Assembly: GCA_945873875.1 (NCBI GenBank)
Contig: CAMCER010000017.1
Location: 1-9,234, forward strand
Direction of reading: 5' to 3'
DNA length: 9,234 bases
Source: an uncultured Clostridia bacterium
Lineage (GTDB): Bacteria > Bacillota_A > Clostridia > Peptostreptococcales > Anaerovoracaceae
Below the pieces are notes generated by a model. That model had not been told where the DNA came from. It was given only the letters and a program-made list of their open reading frames with translations, and searched no databases. This document shows, piece by piece, positions 153-9,234 of this stretch (positions are counted from its first letter, which is position 1; the number at the start of each line of letters is the position of its first letter). The position numbers and the translations under genes were made by a program.

Positions 153-773
153 TTAAAGCCTTTCTCTTACGTAGTTTTTCAGCATCTCCCACTCGTCCGG
201 ATGCTCGACATAGAATTTCGGACAGTTCTTCCCGGTGATATCATAGTGTCTTATGATATTGTCCTCGTCCAGCCTGAACTCCTGACACAGCCACACCAGC
301 AGCTTCACCAGCGCGTTATATGTGGGTATACTGAACTCTCCCGTGGAATCCGGGTGACACACTTCTATGGATATGGTGTCCGGATTTCTCTGGTTTGAAG
401 CTGAAGACTGCTCATCCATGGGCACGCACTGTATTATCTCCCCCTGCAGGCCCACTATGAAATGAGCGCTGGTAGTTGAACTGGGAGAATTGAAATAGCT
501 CCTGTTATCTGCGGCGCTGCTCCCCGGATTTGCCACATAGTGCACCACTATGTCCTTTACTCCGTCCAGAGCCCAGCCTGTGCGGGAATGGCCGTCCTTA
601 TCGATGAAGTCCTGCTCGATCCAGTTCGGCACGCTTACATCCGCGGGATCCGGTCTGCTGAAGTGGATCCACGTAAGGCAGGCGCAGGCCACTACAAGAA
701 GAATGGCCACGAGGGCCACTGTTCTGCTTTTCTTCTTTTTCTGTTTTTTCTTCTTTCTGGAATGTTCCGCCAT
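153..773 (-). CDS. Membrane-anchored N-acetylmuramoyl-L-alanine amidase (Amidase_2 / PGRP fold)
   Basis: Predicted to hydrolyse the bond between muramic acid and the stem peptide of peptidoglycan, acting outside the membrane. The 206-residue protein begins with a very basic stretch (RKKKKQKKKKSR, residues 6-17) and one hydrophobic helix (about 19-36) with no obvious signal peptidase site, so it should be an N-in, C-out anchored protein. The Amidase_2 domain spans about residues 50-200. Zinc ligands are seen as His78 (in IVVHYVANPGS), His176 (in IRHYDITGKNCP) and Cys184, with Glu137 (SIEVCHP) in the usual catalytic position. There are no cell-wall binding repeats, so it is a compact catalytic form. 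The start is supported by AGAGGAG 11 bases upstream on the minus strand. It lies 89 bases downstream of the DUF3592-like gene with no terminator visible between them, so the two may be co-transcribed. Whether it serves cell division, wall turnover or sporulation, or is a domesticated phage lysin, is not shown. Confidence 0.88.
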   Translation of the reverse strand: MAEHSRKKKKQKKKKSRTVALVAILLVVACACLTWIHFSRPDPADVSVPNWIEQDFIDKDGHSRTGWALDGVKDIVVHYVANPGSSAADNRSYFNSPSSTTSAHFIVGLQGEIIQCVPMDEQSSASNQRNPDTISIEVCHPDSTGEFSIPTYNALVKLLVWLCQEFRLDEDNIIRHYDITGKNCPKFYVEHPDEWEMLKNYVRERL

Positions 774-862: not shown

Positions 863-1342
863 TCAGCCGAGCATAGACTTAAAGCCGTACACTACGAAAG
901 GAAGAACTCCCACCAGGAGGACCACTGCGACGAACATCTGGTTCATCTTCTTTTTCTCTTCCACTTCTACAGGGTGGAGTACAATGAATTTATCCGGTCT
1001 TTCCGGAAGATACATTATCGGCAGCTGCTGTCCTTTATAGAAATATTTACCGTAACGGTCTCTGTAGGGAACGATCCTGTCTTTTACGATTATCCTCTTA
1101 TAGTACCTTTTCACCTTGCCTTTGGGTGTATCATATTTGATATTCATAAGGTATGCGATCTTGGTAGCATGGAACGGATTTTCTTTTATATCTGTGATCT
1201 CCGCTGTAGTCTCGACTCCGTGCTTCATTATCCTTCTGGTCTGGAAGAACTGCGCGCTGTTGATCCAGTGCATTATGCCCGCAGCAATAGCGCCGAACAT
1301 CACTACGAAAACCAGAACTGCCATCAACCATTGTGTATTCAT
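863..1342 (-). CDS. Two-helix membrane protein, DUF3592-like
   Basis: A 159-residue protein of unknown function. It has a hydrophobic helix near the N-terminus (about residues 6-28), a strand-rich soluble middle (about 42-122) and a second helix near the C-terminus (about 134-155). The middle has the look of the DUF3592 family: an alternating pattern around AEITDI, YLMNIKYDTPKGKVKRYY, then GQQLPIMYLPERPDKFIVL, where the family has a G-x-x-V-x-V-x-Y-x-P motif. The middle is rich in Lys, Arg and Tyr. The start ATG (1340-1342) is preceded by GAAAGGG with an 8-base spacer on the minus strand. A promoter with an 84-base 5' leader lies upstream. It probably forms a transcription unit with the amidase gene. 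The family call rests on pattern resemblance only; no function is claimed. Confidence 0.75.
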   Translation of the reverse strand: MNTQWLMAVLVFVVMFGAIAAGIMHWINSAQFFQTRRIMKHGVETTAEITDIKENPFHATKIAYLMNIKYDTPKGKVKRYYKRIIVKDRIVPYRDRYGKYFYKGQQLPIMYLPERPDKFIVLHPVEVEEKKKMNQMFVAVVLLVGVLPFVVYGFKSMLG

Positions 1343-1432
1343 ATCTGTACCCTTTCAGTTTCAGGATCCGTGCAGCAAGAACAGAAAAACTGTAAGATCC
1401 CTTTACTCCTTTTGTCATCTGACGTATGCATA

Positions 1433-1461
1433 ATTATATCATGCCTGCTTTTTACGGGCAA
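1433..1461 (-). promoter_or_regulatory. Leftward sigma-A-type promoter for the DUF3592-like/amidase unit
   Basis: On the minus strand, TTGCCC (1461-1456) lies 17 bases from TATAAT (1438-1433), which has a TG extension (TGATATAAT, 1441-1433). Predicted start is near 1426, giving a leader of about 84 bases before the ATG at 1342. The -35 hexamer lies in the spacer of the divergent rightward promoter, so the two promoters overlap. Confidence 0.7.
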
Positions 1462-1465
1462 CATG

Positions 1466-1474
1466 TGGTATAAT
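1466..1474 (+). promoter_or_regulatory. Extended -10 promoter of the CDF transporter gene (leaderless start)
   Basis: A perfect extended -10 element (TGGTATAAT) occupies 1466-1474. No good -35 box is present at the expected place (TGCTTT at 1446-1451), which is tolerated by extended -10 promoters. Counting 7 bases from the last -10 base puts the transcription start at 1481, which is the A of the transporter ATG. The predicted mRNA therefore has no 5' untranslated region. Confidence 0.65.
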
Positions 1475-1480
1475 GCCCCC

Positions 1481-2374
1481 ATGAGCAGTAAAGAATTGAC
1501 AAAAGACCAGACCAGAGGCGTGAGAGTCTCTGTTGTGAATCTGGTCGTGAACATAATAGTTTTCATCGGCAAGCTGTTTGCCGGCATAGCCAGCCATTCA
1601 ACGGCTCTCATTTCAGATGCCATCCATTCAGCCTCCGATGTTCTCGATACCATCATCGTCATGGCAGGCGTGAAGCTGTCTGCGAAAAAGCCGGATAAGA
1701 CACACCACTTCGGGTATGAGCGAATGGAAGCAGTCGCTGCCCTGATCCTTGCCGTCATCCTTTTCATCACAGGAGCGACTATAGGCATCGAAGCAGGCGA
1801 GACCATCATTTCCGGAGAGTATAAGACCAAGGCGAGCCCGGGTCTTCTCGCTCTCATAGTCGCCATCGCCTGCATCATCATAAAAGAGATCATGTACTGG
1901 TACACCCGTTCCGCGGGAAAAGCGCTTTCATCAGGCGCCCTTATGGCCACCGCCTGGCACAGCAGAGCTGACGCCCTCTCTTCGCTGGGGGCTCTGGCAG
2001 GCATCCTGGGTGCGCGCATGGGTCTTGCCATACTGGATCCTCTGGCAGGCATATGCATATGCCTCTTCGTCTTAAAAGTCGCCTGGGGCATATTCAGAAA
2101 CGCGGCAGGAAAACTGACTGACCGGTCGGCGGGAGAAGATCTTGAAGAGTCTGTGCGTCTGGCCGCAGAAAAGATCCCTCAGATAAAGGAAGTCCGCGCT
2201 GTTCGCAGCCGCCTCTTCGGAAACAGGGTCTTTATCGAGGCAGACGTCACTGCAGACTCCGGACTTTCTGTCTCAGAGTGCGCAGATATACGTGCCGCCC
2301 TGAAAAAAGACGTGACAGAAAAGCTGCCTCAGGTGAAAGACTGCCTCATACAGATATTCCCGGCAGACAGATAG
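1481..2374 (+). CDS. Cation diffusion facilitator (CDF) family metal efflux transporter
   Basis: Predicted to export divalent metal (Zn, Fe, Mn, Co or Cd) from the cytoplasm in exchange for protons. It has 297 residues, normal for a bacterial CDF: six transmembrane helices over about residues 15-210, then a cytoplasmic ferredoxin-like dimerisation domain (about 215-295) with the typical VRAVRSRLFGNRVFIEADV strand pattern. The membrane metal site is visible as His49/Asp53 in helix 2 (DAIHSASDVLDT) and His160/Asp164 in helix 5 (AWHSRADALSS). The HxxxD plus HxxxD set points to Zn over FieF-like DxxxD proteins, but specificity cannot be settled. The frame stays open far upstream, but homology begins at this ATG and the upstream part overlaps the DUF3592-like gene antisense. 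No Shine-Dalgarno sequence precedes the ATG, which fits the leaderless mRNA predicted from its promoter. A terminator begins at its stop codon, so it is monocistronic. Confidence 0.92.
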   Translation: MSSKELTKDQTRGVRVSVVNLVVNIIVFIGKLFAGIASHSTALISDAIHSASDVLDTIIVMAGVKLSAKKPDKTHHFGYERMEAVAALILAVILFITGATIGIEAGETIISGEYKTKASPGLLALIVAIACIIIKEIMYWYTRSAGKALSSGALMATAWHSRADALSSLGALAGILGARMGLAILDPLAGICICLFVLKVAWGIFRNAAGKLTDRSAGEDLEESVRLAAEKIPQIKEVRAVRSRLFGNRVFIEADVTADSGLSVSECADIRAALKKDVTEKLPQVKDCLIQIFPADR

Positions 2375-2416: not shown

Positions 2417-2445
2417 TTTACTTGTTTTTTTCAAAGTGGTAGAAT
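2417..2445 (+). promoter_or_regulatory. Promoter of the aromatic amino acid operon
   Basis: TTTACT (2417-2422), a 17-base spacer and TAGAAT (2440-2445) with a TG extension (TGGTAGAAT, 2437-2445) make a good sigma-A-type promoter. The predicted start is near 2452, about 54 bases before the leader peptide ATG and about 296 before aroF. It is the only convincing promoter seen between the transporter and aroF. Confidence 0.7.
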
Positions 2446-2505
2446 TTCTTTGTTCGTGTTTGAAGTATATTTTACTCATAAAGGAACAACTGGAAGGATA
2501 AAATA

Positions 2506-2601
2506 ATGGCCTGTAAACTCAGCAAAAAAGCAGCAGCATATTTTTACTTTTATTTTGGCTTTATCTGGAGAGGTAAGGCGTGTTCTGCTGCAGAGAGCTG
2601 A
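2506..2601 (+). CDS. Aromatic leader peptide (Tyr/Phe/Trp-rich), attenuation sensor of the aro operon
   Basis: A 31-codon ORF that ends before aroF and has no resemblance to an enzyme. It starts MACKLSKKAAA, then YFYFYFGFIW at residues 12-21 (2539-2568), and stops with TGA at 2599-2601. Eight of ten residues in the run are aromatic: four Phe (all TTT), three Tyr, one Trp. The ATG is preceded by GGAAGGA (2492-2498) with a 7-base spacer, a stronger ribosome binding site than several of the enzyme genes have. Its likely role is to make translation speed depend on charged tRNA-Phe, tRNA-Tyr and tRNA-Trp, as the trpL and pheA leader peptides do in enterobacteria. The last third of the ORF (2581-2591) is the switching segment of the RNA structures described at 2530-2673. 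Its position between promoter and attenuator of an operon making these same amino acids is what identifies it. No separate function of the peptide is proposed. Confidence 0.88.
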   Translation: MACKLSKKAAAYFYFYFGFIWRGKACSAAES

Positions 2602-2656
2602 TATCAAGGCATCAAAGGTTTTTCACGAAAAAGACTCAGACTCCGCAGGCAGAACG
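2530..2656 (+). promoter_or_regulatory. Alternative leader RNA structures: protector (1:2) and antiterminator (2:3)
   Basis: Segment 1, GCAGCAG (2530-2536, the Ala codons just before the aromatic run), pairs perfectly with CTGCTGC (2585-2591) in segment 2; past a C/U mismatch three more pairs form (A-U, U-G, A-U, joining 2538-2540 to 2581-2583). Segment 2, TGTTCTGCTGC (2581-2591), pairs alternatively with 2645-2656 through 11 pairs (one G-U) with G2648 bulged. That partner contains most of the 5' arm and part of the loop of the terminator at 2643-2673, so the antiterminator and the terminator cannot coexist. A ribosome stalled early in the aromatic run covers segment 1, frees segment 2 and favours transcription into aroF. 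A ribosome that reaches the stop at 2599 covers segment 2 and favours termination. Pairings were found by eye; energies were not computed. Confidence 0.8.
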
Positions 2657-2673
2657 ATGTCTGCGGTTTTTTT
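2643..2673 (+). terminator. Attenuator: intrinsic terminator in the aro operon leader
   Basis: CCGCAGGCA (2643-2651) pairs with TGTCTGCGG (2658-2666), 9 bp with one G-U, around the loop GAACGA, and is followed directly by seven T residues (2667-2673). It lies 41 bases after the leader peptide stop and 74 before the aroF ATG, with no gene ending just before it except the leader ORF, so it is placed to cut off the operon. Its 5' arm is shared with the antiterminator. Confidence 0.88.
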
Positions 2674-2678
2674 ATGAA

Positions 2679-2696
2679 GCCCGGGAAAAACCGGGC
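2679..2696 (+). other. Small GC-rich hairpin downstream of the attenuator
   Basis: GCCCGG (2679-2684) pairs with CCGGGC (2691-2696) around GAAAAA. No U tract follows, so it is not a terminator. It would sit near the 5' side of the readthrough aroF mRNA and might affect stability or act as a spacer. The rest of 2697-2732 shows nothing clear; the aroF ribosome binding site begins at 2733. Confidence 0.45.
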
Positions 2697-2747
2697 GGAG
2701 GCTGCAGACAGGATGCGGCAGGGCTGAAAGAGAAAGGAATCATAAGA

Positions 2748-3761
2748 ATGATAATCGTACTGAAAAAAGACCCGGAAAAAACACAGCTGGATAACCTGAT
2801 CGCATGGCTCAGATCCATGGATCTTGACATCAACTTCAGCCAGGGCGAGAACACCACCATCCTGGGCCTCATCGGCGACACCAGCCAGGTGGACATAGAT
2901 CTTATCCGCGCCCTTGACATAGTCGATATGGTAAAGCGTATCCAGGAACCGTATAAAAGCGCCAACCGCCAGTTCCATCCGGAAGACACTGTGGTGGATG
3001 TGAACGGGACGAAGATCGGCGGCGGCAATTTCCAGATAATCGCAGGACCCTGCTCAGTAGAATCCCGCGAGCAGGTCATAGAAATAGCCATGGCCGTCAA
3101 AGGCTCCGGCGCAGGTCTTTTCAGAGGCGGCGCCTTCAAACCAAGGACTTCCCCATACGCATTCCAGGGTCTCAGATCAGAAGGCATAAAGCTGCTGATG
3201 GAAGCCAAAAAGGCATCGGGACTTCCTATCGTTACAGAAGTAATGGATATCTCACATCTTCCCCTCTTTGAAGATGTTGACGTGATACAGGTAGGCGCCA
3301 GGAACATGCAGAACTTCGAGCTTCTGAAAGAGCTGGGCACATGCAGAAAGCCCATCCTTCTCAAGCGCGGACTTTCAAACACACTGCAGGAGTTCCTCAT
3401 GAGCGCAGAATACATAATGTCCGGAGGAAACGAGAACATCATCCTCTGCGAGAGAGGCATACGTACTTTTGAAACAGCTACCAGAAATACTCTTGATCTG
3501 GCTGCAGTGCCTCTCCTCAAGAGCAAGACTCATCTGCCGGTCATCGTTGACCCGTCTCATGCCACAGGCATCGCCGATCTGGTAGAGCCTATGGCGCTGG
3601 CGGCTGCAGCTGCCGGAGCTGACGGCCTGATGATCGAGGTCCACAACGACCCGCCTCATGCACTCTGTGACGGAGCTCAGTCTCTGACTCCGGAAAAATT
3701 CGACGAGGTAGCCAGAAAAGTAAGAGCCATACTTCCTAACGCCTACAGGCGCCCGGAATAG
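2748..3761 (+). CDS. aroF: 3-deoxy-7-phosphoheptulonate (DAHP) synthase, type I-beta
   Basis: Condenses phosphoenolpyruvate and erythrose 4-phosphate to DAHP, the first step of the shikimate pathway (EC 2.5.1.54), in the cytoplasm. At 337 residues it matches the Thermotoga/Bacillus-like I-beta enzymes of about 338. An N-terminal ferredoxin-like regulatory domain (about 1-68, MIIVLKKDPEKTQLDNLIAW) precedes the TIM barrel (about 90-335). Visible motifs are GPCSVES (100-106), GGAFKPRTSPYAFQG (127-141), KRG (206-208), RTFETATRNTLD (239-250) and VDPSHATG (267-274). The metal set is Cys102, His271, Glu297 and Asp308. The ATG at 2748 has AAAGGA (2733-2738) 9 bases upstream and starts exactly where the family does; an in-frame GTG at 2580 would run through the leader and is rejected. 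It is the first enzyme gene of the operon and sits directly behind the attenuator. In this subfamily the N-terminal domain commonly binds Tyr or Phe, so enzyme inhibition probably adds to the transcriptional control. Confidence 0.96.
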   Translation: MIIVLKKDPEKTQLDNLIAWLRSMDLDINFSQGENTTILGLIGDTSQVDIDLIRALDIVDMVKRIQEPYKSANRQFHPEDTVVDVNGTKIGGGNFQIIAGPCSVESREQVIEIAMAVKGSGAGLFRGGAFKPRTSPYAFQGLRSEGIKLLMEAKKASGLPIVTEVMDISHLPLFEDVDVIQVGARNMQNFELLKELGTCRKPILLKRGLSNTLQEFLMSAEYIMSGGNENIILCERGIRTFETATRNTLDLAAVPLLKSKTHLPVIVDPSHATGIADLVEPMALAAAAAGADGLMIEVHNDPPHALCDGAQSLTPEKFDEVARKVRAILPNAYRRPE

Positions 3762-4666: not shown

Positions 4667-5782
4667 ATGAGATCTTTTACAGTAAAAGCCTCAACTGAAT
4701 ACGATGTGATCATGGGATCAGGCCTGCTCTCTGACGCAGGCAGGCTCATCCGCCGGGCCCTTCCCGACGCGGAGGCTCTTGTCGTGATCACAGACGATAC
4801 AGTCGCAGCGCTTTATGGAAAAGAGGACCAGCCTCTGATGCGCGGCCTGAAAGAAGCCGGCTTCAGGGTCTCTGAATATGTTTTCCCTCACGGGGAACGC
4901 TCTAAAACACTGAATACTGTGGAAGGCATGCTGGAATATATGGCATCAGACGCTGGCCTTACCAGAAAAGACGCAGCAGTCGCTCTTGGCGGCGGCGTTT
5001 GCGGTGATATGGCAGGCCTTGCCGCAGCTCTCTATATGAGAGGCATCCGGTTCGTCCAGCTTCCTACCAGCCTTCTGGCCGCAGTGGATTCGTCAGTCGG
5101 CGGAAAAACCGCTGTTGACCTTTCCGCAGGCAAGAACCTTGCCGGTGCGTTCTGGCAGCCTTCACTGGTACTCTATGATACAGATACCGCAATGACACTT
5201 GAAAGGACACAGCTTATGGAAGGTCTGGCTGAAGCCGTTAAAAGCGGCATTATAGCAGACCCGTCGCTGTTTTCATATATAAGAGACCGGGCAGATGATC
5301 TTAAAGGATATCTTTCCGGGACAAAGGAAAAAGATCCTTCTTTCACAGAGATGTCTGAGACCATAGCCTTTATGTCCGCCTCCGTGAAAAGGGATATCGT
5401 CCAGCGCGACGAAAAAGAGTCGGGAGAAAGAAAACTCCTGAACCTCGGCCACACTCTGGGCCACGCAGCAGAAAAACTTTCAGGCTTTGAGCTGTCCCAC
5501 GGGCTTGCAGTAGCCAAAGGTACGGCTCTGATCACGAAGGCCGCATGCAGCGCGGGACTCTGTGAAAAAGAGACGGCCGACGCGATAATCTCTCTGCTCA
5601 CTGCTCTGGGATTTGACCTTAGTTGTCCCTGGAGCGCAGAAGAACTGGCAGAGGCTGCTCTCTCTGATAAAAAAAGACGCGGCAGCAATATCACACTTGT
5701 GATACCCGCTGAGATCGGAAAGTGCTTCCTTGAAGAGGTACATATCTCTCAGCTGACAGACTTCATAGAAAACGGTCTTTAA
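4667..5782 (+). CDS. aroB: 3-dehydroquinate synthase
   Basis: Converts DAHP to 3-dehydroquinate with NAD+ and a divalent metal (EC 4.2.3.4), the second shikimate step. The 371 residues are close to the usual 350-370. The N-terminal half binds NAD: GGGVCGDMAGLAAALYMRG (108-126), QLPTSLLAAVDSSVGGKT (131-148), with DSSVGGKT the most diagnostic. The metal-binding half shows Glu189 in GLAEAVKSG, the NLGHTLGHAAEK motif (259-270) with His262/His266, and His278 in LSHGLAVAKG. KRRG near 337-339 is also typical. The start at 4667 matches the family N-terminus (RSFTVKASTEYDVIMGSGLL), but there is no Shine-Dalgarno sequence in the 20 bases before it. It begins 16 bases after the tyrA stop, so translation may depend on ribosomes finishing tyrA. 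Confidence 0.96.
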   Translation: MRSFTVKASTEYDVIMGSGLLSDAGRLIRRALPDAEALVVITDDTVAALYGKEDQPLMRGLKEAGFRVSEYVFPHGERSKTLNTVEGMLEYMASDAGLTRKDAAVALGGGVCGDMAGLAAALYMRGIRFVQLPTSLLAAVDSSVGGKTAVDLSAGKNLAGAFWQPSLVLYDTDTAMTLERTQLMEGLAEAVKSGIIADPSLFSYIRDRADDLKGYLSGTKEKDPSFTEMSETIAFMSASVKRDIVQRDEKESGERKLLNLGHTLGHAAEKLSGFELSHGLAVAKGTALITKAACSAGLCEKETADAIISLLTALGFDLSCPWSAEELAEAALSDKKRRGSNITLVIPAEIGKCFLEEVHISQLTDFIENGL

Positions 5783-5884: not shown

Positions 5885-7117
5885 ATGGATGTAAAAATCA
5901 CCCCGGGTTATCTGTCCGGAGATATCGAAGCTATAGCATCGAAATCCCATGGTCACAGACTGCTTCTGGCATCTGTGCTTACCGCTGCTGAAAGCGGCCG
6001 CACTTCCGCTGAGGATATCGATGAGGCCATCAGAAAGATCTCCATCCCCACCAGATCGGTGGACATCATCACTACAGAAAAATGCCTCAGGGCCCTGGCA
6101 GAAGACGAACCTGTCTTCGAATGCGAAGAAAGCGGTTCGACCCTGCGTTTTCTGCTGCCCGTTGCAATGGTACTGAAAAACAGCGCCGTCTTCAAAGGGA
6201 CAGAAAGGCTTTTCAAAAGACCGCTTTTCCCTCTGGATGAAGAGATGGAAAAACACGGCTGTACCTTCGAGAAAGGCGACAGAGAGCTGAAGGTCACAGG
6301 TTCCCTTACTGCAGGTGTCTACACCATACCCGGAAATATCAGCTCACAGTACATAACAGGACTGCTCTTTGCCCTGTCCCTTCTTGAGGACGACAGTTTC
6401 ATAGAAGTACCGACACGACTGGAGTCTGCAGGCTATATCGACATGACCGTGCAGGTCCTGAAGGATTTCGGGATAGAGATAGATAAAAAACACGCAACTA
6501 AGAAAAGACCCCTTACCTTTGTCATAAAAGGAGGGCAGAAATACACATTCCCTGAGGAAGTTCATGTGGAAGGCGACTGGTCCAACACAGCCTTCTGGTT
6601 CGCAGCCAACGCTTTAGGCTCGAGGATAATCTGCCACGGTATCGACTCACATTCCGCTCAGGGCGACAAAGCCATTCTGGACATCATCGGCTTTTACTCC
6701 AACCTGGGTTCACCCTACGACAAAGGCGGCCCCGTCATGATCGACGTGTCAGATACCCCGGATCTGGTACCCGTAGCCGCTGTCCTTGCGACGGCAGTTC
6801 CGAGAGAGACGCGCATAGTCAGAGCCGGAAGACTCAGGCTCAAGGAAAGCGACCGTCTCAAGACCACCACAGCTCTCATACGCTCACTGGGCGGCAGGAT
6901 CATAGAAAACGAAGATAATCTGGTAATACGTCCTTCCGTCTTAAAAGGCGGAACTGTTGACGGCTCCAACGACCACCGCATCGTCATGGCTGCAGCCATC
7001 GCTGCCACCATCTGCCGTGAGCCGGTGATCATACGCGGCGCTGAAGCCGTAAAAAAATCCTACCCGGACTTCTTCGATGATTTCAGGAAACTGGGCGGGA
7101 TAGCTGAAGAGATATGA
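5885..7117 (+). CDS. aroA: 3-phosphoshikimate 1-carboxyvinyltransferase (EPSP synthase)
   Basis: Transfers enolpyruvate from PEP to shikimate 3-phosphate (EC 2.5.1.19). The 410 residues form the two inside-out alpha/beta domains of the family, slightly shorter than the 427 of E. coli. Motifs in order are SKSHGHR (19-25), ESGSTLRFLLPVA (82-94), GNISSQYITGLLFAL (150-164), ESAGYIDMTVQ (180-190), EGDWSNTAFWFAANAL (229-244), DTPDLVP (290-296) with the catalytic Asp293, LKESDRLK (319-326), DGSNDHRIVMA (359-369) and KSYPDFFDDF (391-400). The PEP-site motif differs from the usual GNAGTxMRP form. Aligning the shared arginine, E. coli Gly96 is kept, Thr97 is Ser and Pro101 is Phe. Similar ESGSTLR motifs occur in Clostridia-type enzymes as far as I recall. 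The start has AGAGGA with an 8-base spacer. Confidence 0.96.
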   Translation: MDVKITPGYLSGDIEAIASKSHGHRLLLASVLTAAESGRTSAEDIDEAIRKISIPTRSVDIITTEKCLRALAEDEPVFECEESGSTLRFLLPVAMVLKNSAVFKGTERLFKRPLFPLDEEMEKHGCTFEKGDRELKVTGSLTAGVYTIPGNISSQYITGLLFALSLLEDDSFIEVPTRLESAGYIDMTVQVLKDFGIEIDKKHATKKRPLTFVIKGGQKYTFPEEVHVEGDWSNTAFWFAANALGSRIICHGIDSHSAQGDKAILDIIGFYSNLGSPYDKGGPVMIDVSDTPDLVPVAAVLATAVPRETRIVRAGRLRLKESDRLKTTTALIRSLGGRIIENEDNLVIRPSVLKGGTVDGSNDHRIVMAAAIAATICREPVIIRGAEAVKKSYPDFFDDFRKLGGIAEEI

Positions 7118-7147: not shown

Positions 7148-8323
7148 ATGGCTCCTGAAACTAACGGAAACAGAAACTCTGTGCGTTCCGGATTCGGAAA
7201 CGCCCTTCACGTGGAAATCTGCGGCGGATCACACGAGCCCTTCGTAGGCGTGACCCTTACAGGACTTCCCGCCGGATTTGAAATAGATAAAGATGCGCTT
7301 TTCCGGTTTATGGAACTGCGCGCTCCCGGAAGATCGCCCTTGGCAACGGGACGCCGTGAACCGGATATCCCGGTATTCACTTCCGGTCTCACTGAAGGAA
7401 CATGGAAAACCGACGGAACGCCTCTTACCATAAAAATAGAAAATACGGACGTCCGCTCCGGGGATTATGATCAGATGAAGACTGTCCCCAGACCGGGACA
7501 CGCGGACTTCTCCGCATATATGAAATATCGTAAAAACGGAACTAACACCGGACCCTGTATGGCCGGCGGCGGACCTTTTTCTGCAAGACTGACTGCGCCT
7601 TTATGCACGGCAGGCGGCATAGCCATGCAGCTACTGGAGAAAAACGGCATCAGTATCGGCGCCCATATTTTCTCTGCAGGAGATGTATATGATACGCCTT
7701 TTGACCCTGCACAGGTCACCGGCAGCAAGCTGAAAAAACTGGCCCAGAGCCCTTTCCCCGTAAACGACGAAGTTTCCGGAGAAAAGATGAAAGCCCTGGT
7801 GCTGGAGATGAAGGAAGCCGGAGATTCAGCAGGCGGCATCATCGAAGCCGCTGTCACAGGTCTTCCTGCAGGTAAAGGCGGACCCATGTATGACGGCGTG
7901 GAGAGCATACTCTCGCCGATCCTGTTCGGGATACCTGCCGTAAAAGGCGTTGAATTCGGGACAGGCTTCGCGTCGGCATATCTGAAGGGCTCGGAAAACA
8001 ACGACCCCTTCGTGATCAGAGACGGTAAAGTCAGCACCGTGACCAACCATCACGGAGGCATCCTTGGCGGCATCACCACCGGCATGCCTCTCATAGTCAG
8101 AGTCGCTTTCAAACCGACTCCGTCCATCGCCCTTGAGCAGGATTCTGTCGACCTTGAGAAAATGGCTCCTGCAAAGATAAAAGTAAGCGGCCGTCACGAC
8201 CCCTGTGTGGCACTTAGAGCAGCACCGGCAGTAAACGCCGCGCTGGCTTTAGGTCTTTCTGACCTTCTGCTTCAGCAGGGATTTGACTGCAGCTGTCAGG
8301 ATAAGGATCCAAAGTGCAGATAA
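7148..8323 (+). CDS. aroC: Chorismate synthase
   Basis: Removes phosphate from EPSP to give chorismate, using reduced FMN as cofactor (EC 4.2.3.5). The 391 residues are somewhat longer than the usual 350-390, with a 10-residue N-terminal extension and a Cys-containing tail. Signatures are GRSPLATGRREPD (61-73), VPRPGHAD (113-120) with the conserved His118, GLPAGKGGPMYDGVES (238-253), TNHHGGILGGITTGMP (299-314) and SGRHDPCVALRA (347-358). Two places are divergent. The first signature, usually GESHG, reads GGSHE (26-30) but keeps His29. The FMN-loop region, usually GGRASARETA, reads AGGGPFSARLTAP (139-151). A GGG-x-FSxRLTAP form appears to be a clostridial variant, from memory. The ATG at 7148 has AAAGGA (7133-7138) 9 bases upstream. 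It follows aroA by 30 bases. I expect an active enzyme. Confidence 0.95.
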   Translation: MAPETNGNRNSVRSGFGNALHVEICGGSHEPFVGVTLTGLPAGFEIDKDALFRFMELRAPGRSPLATGRREPDIPVFTSGLTEGTWKTDGTPLTIKIENTDVRSGDYDQMKTVPRPGHADFSAYMKYRKNGTNTGPCMAGGGPFSARLTAPLCTAGGIAMQLLEKNGISIGAHIFSAGDVYDTPFDPAQVTGSKLKKLAQSPFPVNDEVSGEKMKALVLEMKEAGDSAGGIIEAAVTGLPAGKGGPMYDGVESILSPILFGIPAVKGVEFGTGFASAYLKGSENNDPFVIRDGKVSTVTNHHGGILGGITTGMPLIVRVAFKPTPSIALEQDSVDLEKMAPAKIKVSGRHDPCVALRAAPAVNAALALGLSDLLLQQGFDCSCQDKDPKCR

Positions 8324-8397: not shown

Positions 8398-9234
8398 ATG
8401 GAAGAAAAAATGAACATGGAAGAGATCCGAGATCAGATCGATAACGTGGACGAGGAGCTCTGCAGCCTCTTCAGAAAAAGGATGGACCTTTCTCTGAGCA
8501 TGGCGAAATACAAGAAGGAAAACAACCTGGCTGTTTTCAATCAGGAAAGAGAAAACCAGATACTCCACAAAGTGACGAATATGCTGGGCGAGCCTCTGGA
8601 CAAATACGGCAGGATCCTCTATAACACCATCTTTGACGTGAGCCGCGCTTATCAGCACAGCTACATGGATCACAACTCTGAACTGAAAGAAAAGATCAGG
8701 ACCGCAGTTGAAAACACACCTGCTCTTTTCCCGGAAAAAGCTGCAGTTGCCTGCCAGGGCATCGCAGGAGCCTTTTCACAGGCTGCAGCAGAGAAACTGT
8801 TCCAGTTTCCTACCATCATGTTCTTTGCAAGCTTTGAAAGCGTCTTCAACGCTGTGGAAAAAGGCATGTGCAAATACGGCCTTCTCCCTATAGAGAACAG
8901 CTCTTATGGTTCAGTCGGCAGGGTCTATGACCTAATGAAGAGCCATAATTTCAATATCGTCAGAGTCGTAAGGATGAAAGTGACTCACAAGCTCCTGGCA
9001 AATCCGGGTGCGAAAACGGAAGACATAAAAGAGATCATCTCCCATGAGCAGGCCATCGGCCAGTGTTCTGAGTTCATCCGTCAGCTGACAGAAAAGAACG
9101 ATGTAAAGATCACCGTATGCGAGAATACTGCCCTTGCCGCGGAAACAGTCGCTAAAAGCGGCAGGACTGATATCGCCGCCATCTCTTCAAGAGAATGCGC
9201 AGGCATATACGGTCTGCAGATACTCAGTGAGAAC
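8398..9234 (+). CDS. pheA: Bifunctional chorismate mutase / prephenate dehydratase (P-protein), cut by the right edge
   Basis: Rearranges chorismate to prephenate and dehydrates it to phenylpyruvate, the phenylalanine branch. 279 codons are present and the frame is open at the edge. Residues about 8-92 are an AroQ-type chorismate mutase: Arg11, Arg28, Lys39, Arg51 and Glu52 fall at the E. coli P-protein active-site numbers when counted from this ATG (residue 48 is Asn instead of Asp). The dehydratase domain starts near 115 (VACQGIAGAFSQAAAEKLF), with GLLPIENSSYGSVG (161-174) and AAISSRECAGIYGLQIL (260-276). Its catalytic Thr-Arg-Phe motif and the expected ACT domain for Phe feedback lie beyond the window. 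The numbering match supports 8398, but 8374 (8 residues longer), 8410 and 8416 are possible starts. It lies 74 bases after aroC. The mutase domain supplies prephenate to both this enzyme and TyrA, which has no mutase domain. Confidence 0.94.
   Translation, partial: MEEKMNMEEIRDQIDNVDEELCSLFRKRMDLSLSMAKYKKENNLAVFNQERENQILHKVTNMLGEPLDKYGRILYNTIFDVSRAYQHSYMDHNSELKEKIRTAVENTPALFPEKAAVACQGIAGAFSQAAAEKLFQFPTIMFFASFESVFNAVEKGMCKYGLLPIENSSYGSVGRVYDLMKSHNFNIVRVVRMKVTHKLLANPGAKTEDIKEIISHEQAIGQCSEFIRQLTEKNDVKITVCENTALAAETVAKSGRTDIAAISSRECAGIYGLQILSEN

What the first reader, a model, noticed from the sequence alone, without database searches (positions are those of the whole stretch)
2452..2747. Ribosome-mediated attenuator with a Tyr/Phe/Trp leader peptide in front of the whole aromatic operon
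Seen directly: a promoter, a 31-codon ORF with a strong ribosome binding site, the run YFYFYFGFIW, a 9-bp U7 terminator, and an 11-bp antiterminator (2581-2591 with 2645-2656) that uses the terminator's 5' arm. All parts of a trpL/pheL-type attenuator are present. What stands out is that one peptide carries codons for all three aromatic amino acids, that it controls a six-gene common-plus-branch operon starting with DAHP synthase, and that the host looks like a Gram-positive, where such operons are more often under T-box or TRAP-type control. I do not know of a described example with this layout, but cannot search.
Basis: partly seen in the sequence, partly recalled or inferred. Interest (0 to 1): 0.93.

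Follow-up and report, generated by a model that had tools for sequence, protein, structure and literature searches.

The report
Aromatic leader-peptide switch in Clostridia
A 31-codon reading frame packed with tyrosine and phenylalanine codons plus one tryptophan codon lies with a transcription terminator before a cluster of aromatic amino-acid genes and likely switches them on when those amino acids run short; 39 of 80 sampled genomes of Clostridia with this first enzyme carry such a frame before it.

Summary
Window 2417-2747 contains a promoter-like site, a Shine-Dalgarno-led 31-codon ORF with YFYFYFGFIW, a 9-bp U7 terminator and an alternative stem using the terminator's 5' arm (10 bp with one bulge plus 4 bp, not 11 clean pairs). 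An aromatic-run ORF precedes 56 of 80 related DAHP synthase genes, against 0 of 146 control windows, and 39 of 110 genes in an even draw of the class Clostridia; 37 of those 39 have a terminator after the run. In both sets, which share no leader sequence, stems 1:2 and 2:3 pair specifically with their own partners; two control pairings are far weaker. Leaders never coincide with T-boxes (39, 19, 0 both of 110). Tyr/Phe sensing is well supported by sequence. Trp sensing is less certain: W is in the run of 9 of 39 leaders class-wide but 25 of 35 in one order. The mechanism is the known trpL/pheL type; nearest described case is uORFC-13-1, upstream of aroF in Acholeplasma (PMC8632094). No expression data were available.

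The parts
2417..2445 (+). sigma-70-type promoter-like site TTTACT-17-TAGAAT with extended TG; predicted start near 2452
   Evidence: (9 of 12; 1 found, 0.5 expected), sequence
2492..2498 (+). Shine-Dalgarno GGAAGGA, 7 nt before the leader ATG
   Evidence: sequence
2506..2601 (+). leader ORF, 31 codons, MACKLSKKAAAYFYFYFGFIWRGKACSAAES*
   Evidence: counterparts
2539..2568 (+). control codons 12-21, Y F Y F Y F G F I W
2530..2541 (+). segment 1, pairs with 2580-2591 (anti-antiterminator 1:2)
   Evidence: own-partner specificity across loci
2578..2591 (+). segment 2, pairs with segment 1 or with segment 3 (antiterminator 2:3)
2643..2655 (+). segment 3, terminator 5' arm; alternative partner of segment 2
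2658..2673 (+). segment 4, terminator 3' arm 2658-2666 plus U7 2667-2673
2748..3761 (+). aroF: DAHP synthase, type I-beta with N-terminal FXD domain
   Evidence: NF006421, TIGR01361, PF18152
3784..4650 (+). tyrA-like prephenate dehydrogenase (below the cut-off of every family listed)
   Evidence: best 25 of 26 families listed
4667..5782 (+). aroB, 3-dehydroquinate synthase
5885..7117 (+). aroA, EPSP synthase (255 bits, cut-off 287)
7148..8323 (+). aroC, chorismate synthase
8410..9234 (+). pheA-like fused chorismate mutase-prephenate dehydratase, start uncertain, cut by window end

Best explanation
The stretch 2452-2747 is predicted to be a ribosome-mediated transcription attenuator in which translation of a 31-codon peptide with a Tyr/Phe run and one Trp codon would decide whether RNA polymerase reads through into the aroF operon. 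Shown by sequence and comparison: the ORF, the run, the terminator and the alternative partners recur before related DAHP synthase genes. Inferred: when charged tRNA-Tyr or tRNA-Phe is scarce the ribosome would stall on codons 12-19 and keep segment 1 away from segment 2; segment 2 would then pair with segment 3 before segment 4 is made, no terminator would form and aroF-tyrA-aroB-aroA-aroC-pheA would be transcribed. With enough aromatic amino acids the ribosome would run on to the stop codon at 2599-2601, cover segment 2, and the 3:4 terminator would stop transcription. Trp shortage would act the same way through codon 21 (least certain step).
For: Aromatic-run ORF with SD before 56/80 near relatives versus 0/74 downstream and 0/72 further-upstream windows, 1/80 reverse strands and 0.1% of 1600 shuffles; 39/110 class-wide genes, reverse strand 1/110. 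The excess over the reverse strand holds at each of 18 detector settings (its class figures predate a strand fix). Terminator within 200 nt of the gene in 37/39 leader loci, 18/19 T-box loci, 8/52 with neither. Own-versus-foreign pairing: near set n=53, 2:3 z -5.5 and 1:2 z -10.2, both 0/20000 permutations, controls 1:3 z -1.0 (3000/20000) and 1:4 z -1.8 (715/20000); class set n=33, 2:3 z -4.2 (3/20000), 1:2 z -11.4 (0/20000), controls -0.8 and +1.5. No leader DNA is shared between the two sets. Window model with segment 4 not yet made: segments 2:3 paired 0.90 with the A site on any of codons 8-22, 0.08 at codon 25, 0.00 at the stop. In the same type of model E. coli trpL gives 0.62 on its Trp codons and 0.00 at the stop, pheL 0.80-0.81 and 0.00, hisL 0.35-0.68 on His codons and 0.07-0.68 at the stop depending on RNA length. 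T-box and leader never coincide: 0 of 110, Fisher 9e-5.
Against: With the full RNA at equilibrium the terminator stays above 0.5 for every stall in the run in 45 of 53 loci; the window is one of the 8 exceptions, and there a stall on Trp21 still gives terminator 0.95. Single-locus shuffles reach p<0.05 in only 10 of 55 loci for 2:3 and 17 of 55 for 1:2. In the 30 loci with a common GCAG-like terminator core, 2:3 is only weakly own-specific (z -2.1, 342/20000). Without a ribosome the truncated model often still pairs 2:3 (window 0.65, 0.86; mean of 53 is 0.56, as in shuffled sets), so shutdown of an untranslated leader is not reproduced. 'Stall minus stop >0.3' is 35/53 against 21-31 in ten shuffled sets, a modest gain. 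No RNA or starvation data. 24 of 80 near relatives and 71 of 110 class-wide genes lack the leader by the strict test.
Confidence: 0.9

Rival explanations
1. The terminator is controlled by another sensor (T-box, metabolite riboswitch or RNA-binding protein), and the ORF is incidental.
For: T-box motifs precede the same gene in 19 of 110 class-wide cases; of the 17 found first, Rfam matched 16 at E<=1e-3, 13 of them over the gathering score.
Against: No Rfam family reaches its gathering score in the window, and the only match up to E 1 in the leader is a chance-level lncRNA model on the other strand; 0 of 20 leader loci given to Rfam hold a T-box (20 of 39). The aromatic run is kept in frame while the sequence drifts, with changes by codon position 244/246/415 in 54 pairs (pairs were chosen by peptide similarity, which biases this).
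Confidence: 0.04
2. The leader senses only Tyr and Phe; the single Trp codon in the window is a neutral substitution at the end of the run.
For: In near relatives W is in 3 of 59 leaders and 2 of 421 aromatic codons of the best windows; the window W sits where several relatives have Y/F before a GKA-like stretch; the equilibrium model gives terminator for a stall at codon 21. In leader genomes trpE has its own T-box motif in 12 of 15 examined.
Against: W is in the run of 25 of 35 leaders in one order, at kept places such as QSYWFFSFGYF and FSWGYYY; the co-transcriptional model gives 0.90 antiterminator for a stall at codon 21.
Confidence: 0.45
3. The short ORF encodes a small membrane peptide of its own function and its T-rich codons are a by-product.
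For: Runs of Phe/Tyr are hydrophobic; five leaders tested match no Pfam or NCBIfam family, so no such function is excluded by name.
Against: Peptides differ widely while the RNA partners are kept specifically. That the ORFs lie before DAHP synthase is by design of my search and is no evidence here.
Confidence: 0.02

Closest known systems
E. coli pheL and trpL ribosome-mediated attenuators
   Same: Short ORF with control codons, alternative stems, U-tract terminator, biosynthetic gene downstream; the same folding model behaves alike on them.
   Different: One amino acid each; here Tyr and Phe codons with one Trp, before the first common-pathway gene plus Tyr and Phe branch genes; longer peptide; no Rfam match.
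uORFC-13-1 motif (PMC8632094, section 26 read)
   Same: uORF with at least one Phe codon, directly before a terminator, upstream of aroF; attenuation by Phe proposed.
   Different: Reported as 24 representatives only in Acholeplasma and environmental sequence; no Tyr/Trp run mentioned in that section. Its consensus could not be compared (figures not held).
His leader peptides of hisS paralogues in Bacilli (PMC2965389, passages)
   Same: Leader-peptide attenuator in Firmicutes replacing a T-box.
   Different: Histidine, tRNA synthetase genes, Bacilli.
Attenuator sensing Tyr-tRNA at aroF, listed in a Shewanella study (PMC2659441, passages)
   Same: Attenuation proposed at a DAHP synthase gene for an aromatic amino acid.
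   Different: Proteobacteria, Tyr-sensitive enzyme; no leader sequence was seen in the passages.
Leu-rich attenuator peptide of ilv genes in Staphylococcus aureus (PMC5794164, search listing only) and ilvL/thrL of E. coli (recalled)
   Same: Leader-peptide attenuation in a Firmicute; ilvL and thrL are multi-amino-acid leaders.
   Different: Branched-chain or Thr/Ile codons, not aromatic.
T-box upstream of DAHP synthase (RF00230)
   Same: Precedes the same gene in other Clostridia, usually with a terminator (18 of 19).
   Different: tRNA binds the RNA directly, no ORF needed (recalled); never found together with the leader.

Membership tests
ribosome-mediated transcription attenuator (trpL/pheL type) | translatable short ORF with ribosome binding site | tested here: met
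   kept across relatives. Translation itself not shown.
ribosome-mediated transcription attenuator (trpL/pheL type) | run of codons for the operon's end products | tested here: met
   runs in relatives beyond chance. For Trp no trp gene lies in the window.
ribosome-mediated transcription attenuator (trpL/pheL type) | intrinsic terminator between ORF and first gene | tested here: met
   55 of 60 leaders, 37 of 39
ribosome-mediated transcription attenuator (trpL/pheL type) | alternative antiterminator using the terminator 5' arm | tested here: met
   cross-locus specificity; weak in single-locus shuffles
ribosome-mediated transcription attenuator (trpL/pheL type) | stall on control codons, but not arrival at stop, leaves segment 2 free | tested here: met
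   window model; group effect modest
ribosome-mediated transcription attenuator (trpL/pheL type) | stall favours antiterminator in the full-length RNA at equilibrium | tested here: inconclusive
   8 of 53 loci, window among them for codons 15-20 only; E. coli controls were not run in this form
ribosome-mediated transcription attenuator (trpL/pheL type) | readthrough responds to amino-acid starvation | not testable with these tools
   needs a reporter or RNA data
T-box leader | match to RF00230 | tested here: not met
uORFC-13-1 | uORF then terminator directly upstream of aroF | tested here: met
   text of PMC8632094 section 26
uORFC-13-1 | match to its consensus sequence and extra stem | not testable with these tools
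   consensus is in a figure that is not held
Rfam leader families | gathering-score match | tested here: not met
   all 4227 families

The most novel reading that the evidence does not exclude
One peptide integrates Tyr, Phe and, where the cell also makes Trp, Trp tRNA charging to gate entry into the whole shikimate pathway. It is the standard control of FXD-type DAHP synthase in about half of sampled Clostridia, an alternative to the T-box at the same gene, while the trp branch of the same cells keeps its own T-box.
Probability: 0.45. Interest if true: 0.75.

Novelty: new variant of a known kind. Interest (0 to 1): 0.6.

Why it matters
If true, it gives Clostridia, many of them gut bacteria by their record labels, a defined control point for aromatic amino-acid synthesis. 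It adds a multi-aromatic member to a mechanism best known from Proteobacteria. It also offers a clean natural comparison: the same gene under a leader peptide in some genomes and under a T-box in others, never both (0 of 110). The window leader matches no Rfam family at its gathering score and five leader peptides tested match no Pfam or NCBIfam family, so such leaders are not named by these libraries.

Tried and rejected
Genome of the window: none is held, so its own trp genes and other leaders could not be examined, and its host is inferred only from its closest DAHP synthases (77% identical to a Clostridiales MAG). Counting Y/F codon runs genome-wide as a specificity control was uninformative: 5-codon runs are common and not enriched over the reversed pattern in four genomes. 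Equilibrium folding of stalled complexes does not reproduce the switch in most loci; kept as evidence against. Single-locus shuffle tests of stems were weak, so I turned to the own-versus-foreign test, which relatedness should make conservative.

Hypothesis that a Trp codon goes with a trpE gene: class set 7 of 9 W leaders against 9 of 30 others, p 0.015 (deduplicated 7 of 9 against 5 of 26, p 0.003). Follow-up in one order gave the same direction but no significance: 22 of 25 against 6 of 10, p 0.084; an earlier version on fewer loci gave p 0.16, and 0.39 on new genomes only. The hypothesis was formed after seeing the first set, trpE is common in that order, and genomes may be incomplete; suggestive only. 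A second trpE-like hit in one genome of that order proved to be pabB-like, so in the order only hits of 495 bits or more were counted as trpE; class-set hits counted were all 511 bits or more.

Error found and corrected: loci from the genome search are stored unreversed, so minus-strand hits were read on the wrong strand (37 of 110 leaders and 17 T-boxes there). replace them. The class figures also predate the fix.

Rows dropped: L006 (weak, distant ORF) and L010 (same leader as L009); G001 (already L010) and one of two fragments of G119 before the class count of 110; two fragments of G342 before the order count of 52 (54 rows); near-identical leaders before the class swap test (37 to 33). L197 has only 142 nt upstream. 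From (291 genomes, list cut off) only 15 new loci were examined: 3 leaders, 2 T-boxes, 0 both; not used in the headline counts.

Full report
What is in the window. The leader lies between a cation-efflux gene and a gene for DAHP synthase of type I-beta with an N-terminal FXD domain. It holds a promoter-like site at 2417-2445, a Shine-Dalgarno sequence at 2492-2498, a 31-codon ORF at 2506-2601 whose codons 12-21 read YFYFYFGFIW, and a 9-bp terminator at 2643-2666 with U7. Folding shows stem 2:3 (2582-2591 with 2645-2655, one bulged G, plus 2578-2581 with 2657-2660), which excludes both stem 1:2 (2530-2541 with 2580-2591) and the terminator 3:4. The leader folds better than shuffles (z -2.48). 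No Rfam family reaches its gathering score anywhere in the window, and the only match up to E 1 in the leader is a chance-level lncRNA model on the other strand. Five leader peptides tested have no Pfam or NCBIfam match.

Conservation in near relatives. The 80 best relatives of the window's DAHP synthase (64-77% identical) were examined over 500 nt upstream. With a test that demands a start codon, a Shine-Dalgarno 4-mer, 12-60 codons and at least 6 Y/F/W in 10 residues, 56 of 80 have such an ORF, against 0 of 74 windows downstream, 0 of 72 windows further upstream, 1 of 80 reverse strands and 0.1% of 1600 dinucleotide shuffles. Dropping the Shine-Dalgarno demand gives 67 of 80 with 5 on the reverse strand. 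Peptides differ, but many share an Ala-rich stretch before the run and several a GKA-like stretch after it, which is where RNA segments 1 and 2 lie in the window. In 72 of 80 loci at least one further gene of the window's aromatic set lies in the stretch held; three of the other eight stretches end soon after or inside aroF. Common orders are aroF-tyrA-aroB-aroA and aroF-aroB-aroA-aroC. Named isolates with the leader include Angelakisella massiliensis, Yanshouia hominis, Anaerotignum neopropionicum and Aminicella lysinilytica (in the last no terminator was found); it also occurs in loci labelled Treponema and Lentisphaerae (L014, L069).

An even draw of the class. To escape the bias of nearest relatives I searched 118 genomes drawn from the class of G001 (Angelakisella) for the FXD domain; 81 have it. 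I examined 110 genes in 80 genomes. After correcting a strand error, 39 of 110 genes (39 of 80 genomes) carry the leader, 19 carry a T-box motif, none carries both (Fisher 9e-5), and one reverse strand scores. None of these leaders has the same DNA as one of the near set. Rfam matched a T-box in 16 of the 17 motif-bearing loci found first and found none in 20 of the 39 leader loci; the other loci were tested by motif only. Terminators lie within 200 nt of the gene in 37 of 39 leader loci, 18 of 19 T-box loci and 8 of 52 others. So the same gene appears to be under one or the other terminator-based sensor, or neither.

Are the stems real? For each locus I compared the pairing energy of its own segments with those of other loci. 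In 53 near-set loci (window included) the 2:3 and 1:2 pairings are specific to their own partner (z -5.5 and -10.2; 0 of 20000 permutations each), while 1:3 and 1:4 are far weaker (z -1.0, 3000 of 20000; z -1.8, 715 of 20000). In the 23 loci whose terminator lacks a GCAG-like core (a split I set), 2:3 is as specific (z -5.7), so the partners have changed together; there the 1:4 control is also low (z -2.1). In the 30 loci with the core, 2:3 is weak (z -2.1), as expected where loci share the same letters. The class set (33 after removing near-identical peptides) repeats the result: 2:3 z -4.2 (3 of 20000), 1:2 z -11.4 (0 of 20000), controls -0.8 and +1.5.

How it would work. With RNA made only to 2655 and the ribosome's leading edge set at 13 nt from the first base of the A-site codon, segment 3 pairs with segment 2 with probability 0.90 when the A site is on any of codons 8-22, which spans the whole aromatic run and Trp21; it falls to 0.08 at codon 25 and 0.00 at the stop. 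In this type of model E. coli trpL and pheL behave likewise (0.62 and 0.80-0.81 on control codons, 0.00 at the stop); hisL gives 0.35-0.68 on its His codons but its stop value is 0.07 or 0.68 depending on how far the RNA extends. Across 53 loci the mean for stalls in the run is 0.73, against 0.53-0.57 in ten shuffled sets, and falls to 0.34 at the stop, as it also does when shuffled (0.33-0.37). Against this, with the full RNA at equilibrium the terminator wins in 45 of 53 loci whatever the stall in the run, and without a ribosome 2:3 often pairs too. The switch therefore has to rest on the order in which the segments appear, which is inferred, not shown.

Which amino acids? In the near set the aromatic codons of the best windows are TTT 191, TTC 33, TAC 109, TAT 86 and TGG 2; in the class set the runs hold F 209, Y 170, W 10, and 38 of 39 have both Y and F. 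W stands in the run of 9 of 39 class leaders, but in 25 of 35 leaders of the order of G120 (52 genes examined), at kept places such as QSYWFFSFGYF and FSWGYYY; many of those 25 are close relatives. The window is thus a three-aromatic leader, a form that recurs. In the class set W leaders more often lie in genomes with trpE (7 of 9 against 9 of 30, p 0.015), but a follow-up in the order was not significant (p 0.084). In leader-bearing genomes trpE itself has a T-box motif within 500 nt in 12 of the 15 examined (the sixteenth, G012, was not examined), so Trp seems to have a separate control at its own branch.

What is known. In ten searches of the paper library no listed title, and no passage I read, describes a Tyr/Phe/Trp leader before DAHP synthase in Clostridia; the library lacks most subscription papers and I read parts of five papers, so this is weak. 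The nearest is uORFC-13-1, 24 sequences in Acholeplasma and environmental DNA, upstream of aroF with a terminator and at least one Phe codon, proposed to work by attenuation; the same section notes an earlier hypothesis of this kind for aroF of E. coli (PMC8632094; passages and section 26 read). Leader peptides replacing T-boxes in Firmicutes are described for hisS (PMC2965389, passages). An attenuator sensing Tyr-tRNA is listed for aroF in a Shewanella study (PMC2659441, passages). A survey of Actinobacteria found no RNA structures for Phe or Tyr operons (PMC1262725, passages). A survey of 50 genomes shows other uORFs but no aromatic one in the passages seen (PMC11109978).

Verdict. It works like a trpL/pheL attenuator and meets every sequence-level feature tested, apart from the equilibrium test, which is inconclusive. 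I call it a new variant of a known kind: the mechanism is old; the aromatic multi-codon leader at the head of the shikimate pathway, spread through Clostridia as the alternative to the T-box, is what seems undescribed.

Noticed in passing
L225-L239 (trpE loci of leader-bearing genomes): trpE has a T-box motif within 500 nt upstream in 12 of 15 leader-bearing genomes examined, so common pathway and Trp branch appear to use different sensors in one cell. Anaerotignum (G003) also has an Rfam T-box about 135 nt before trpE that my motif missed.
   Followed up: partly
L014, L069, L033, L042, L065, L077: Leader-like ORFs before DAHP synthase also occur in loci labelled Treponema, Lentisphaerae, Planctomycetia and Victivallales (L014 and L069 by the strict test, the others only by the relaxed one); horizontal transfer of the operon with its leader, or mis-binned contigs.
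   Followed up: no
near-set loci, aromatic runs: Codon use differs within the runs: Tyr is TAC 109 / TAT 86, Phe is TTT 191 / TTC 33.
   Followed up: no
class set, 30 genomes with two FXD DAHP synthase genes: In 6 of the 30 one copy has the leader, in none both, and in none one copy has the leader and the other a T-box motif.
   Followed up: no
L305 4846-7715: In G094 the region after the leader-headed aroF and tyrA-like genes also holds pabA/trpG-like, pabB-like and pabC-like genes; ORFs on the other strand lie between, so one operon is not shown.
   Followed up: partly
window 2681-2697: A second small G+C-rich hairpin (CCCGG-GAAAAA-CCGGG) lies just after the terminator without a U-tract (sequence).
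   Followed up: no
window 153-773 (-), 863-1342 (-) and 974-2374 (+): Upstream neighbours: an N-acetylmuramoyl-L-alanine amidase domain protein, an unnamed protein with no Pfam match, and a cation-efflux protein whose true start is probably well inside the listed ORF.
   Followed up: no
52 of 110 class-set genes: FXD DAHP synthase genes with neither leader nor T-box motif mostly also lack a terminator (8 of 52 have one); they may be internal to operons or under other control.
   Followed up: no
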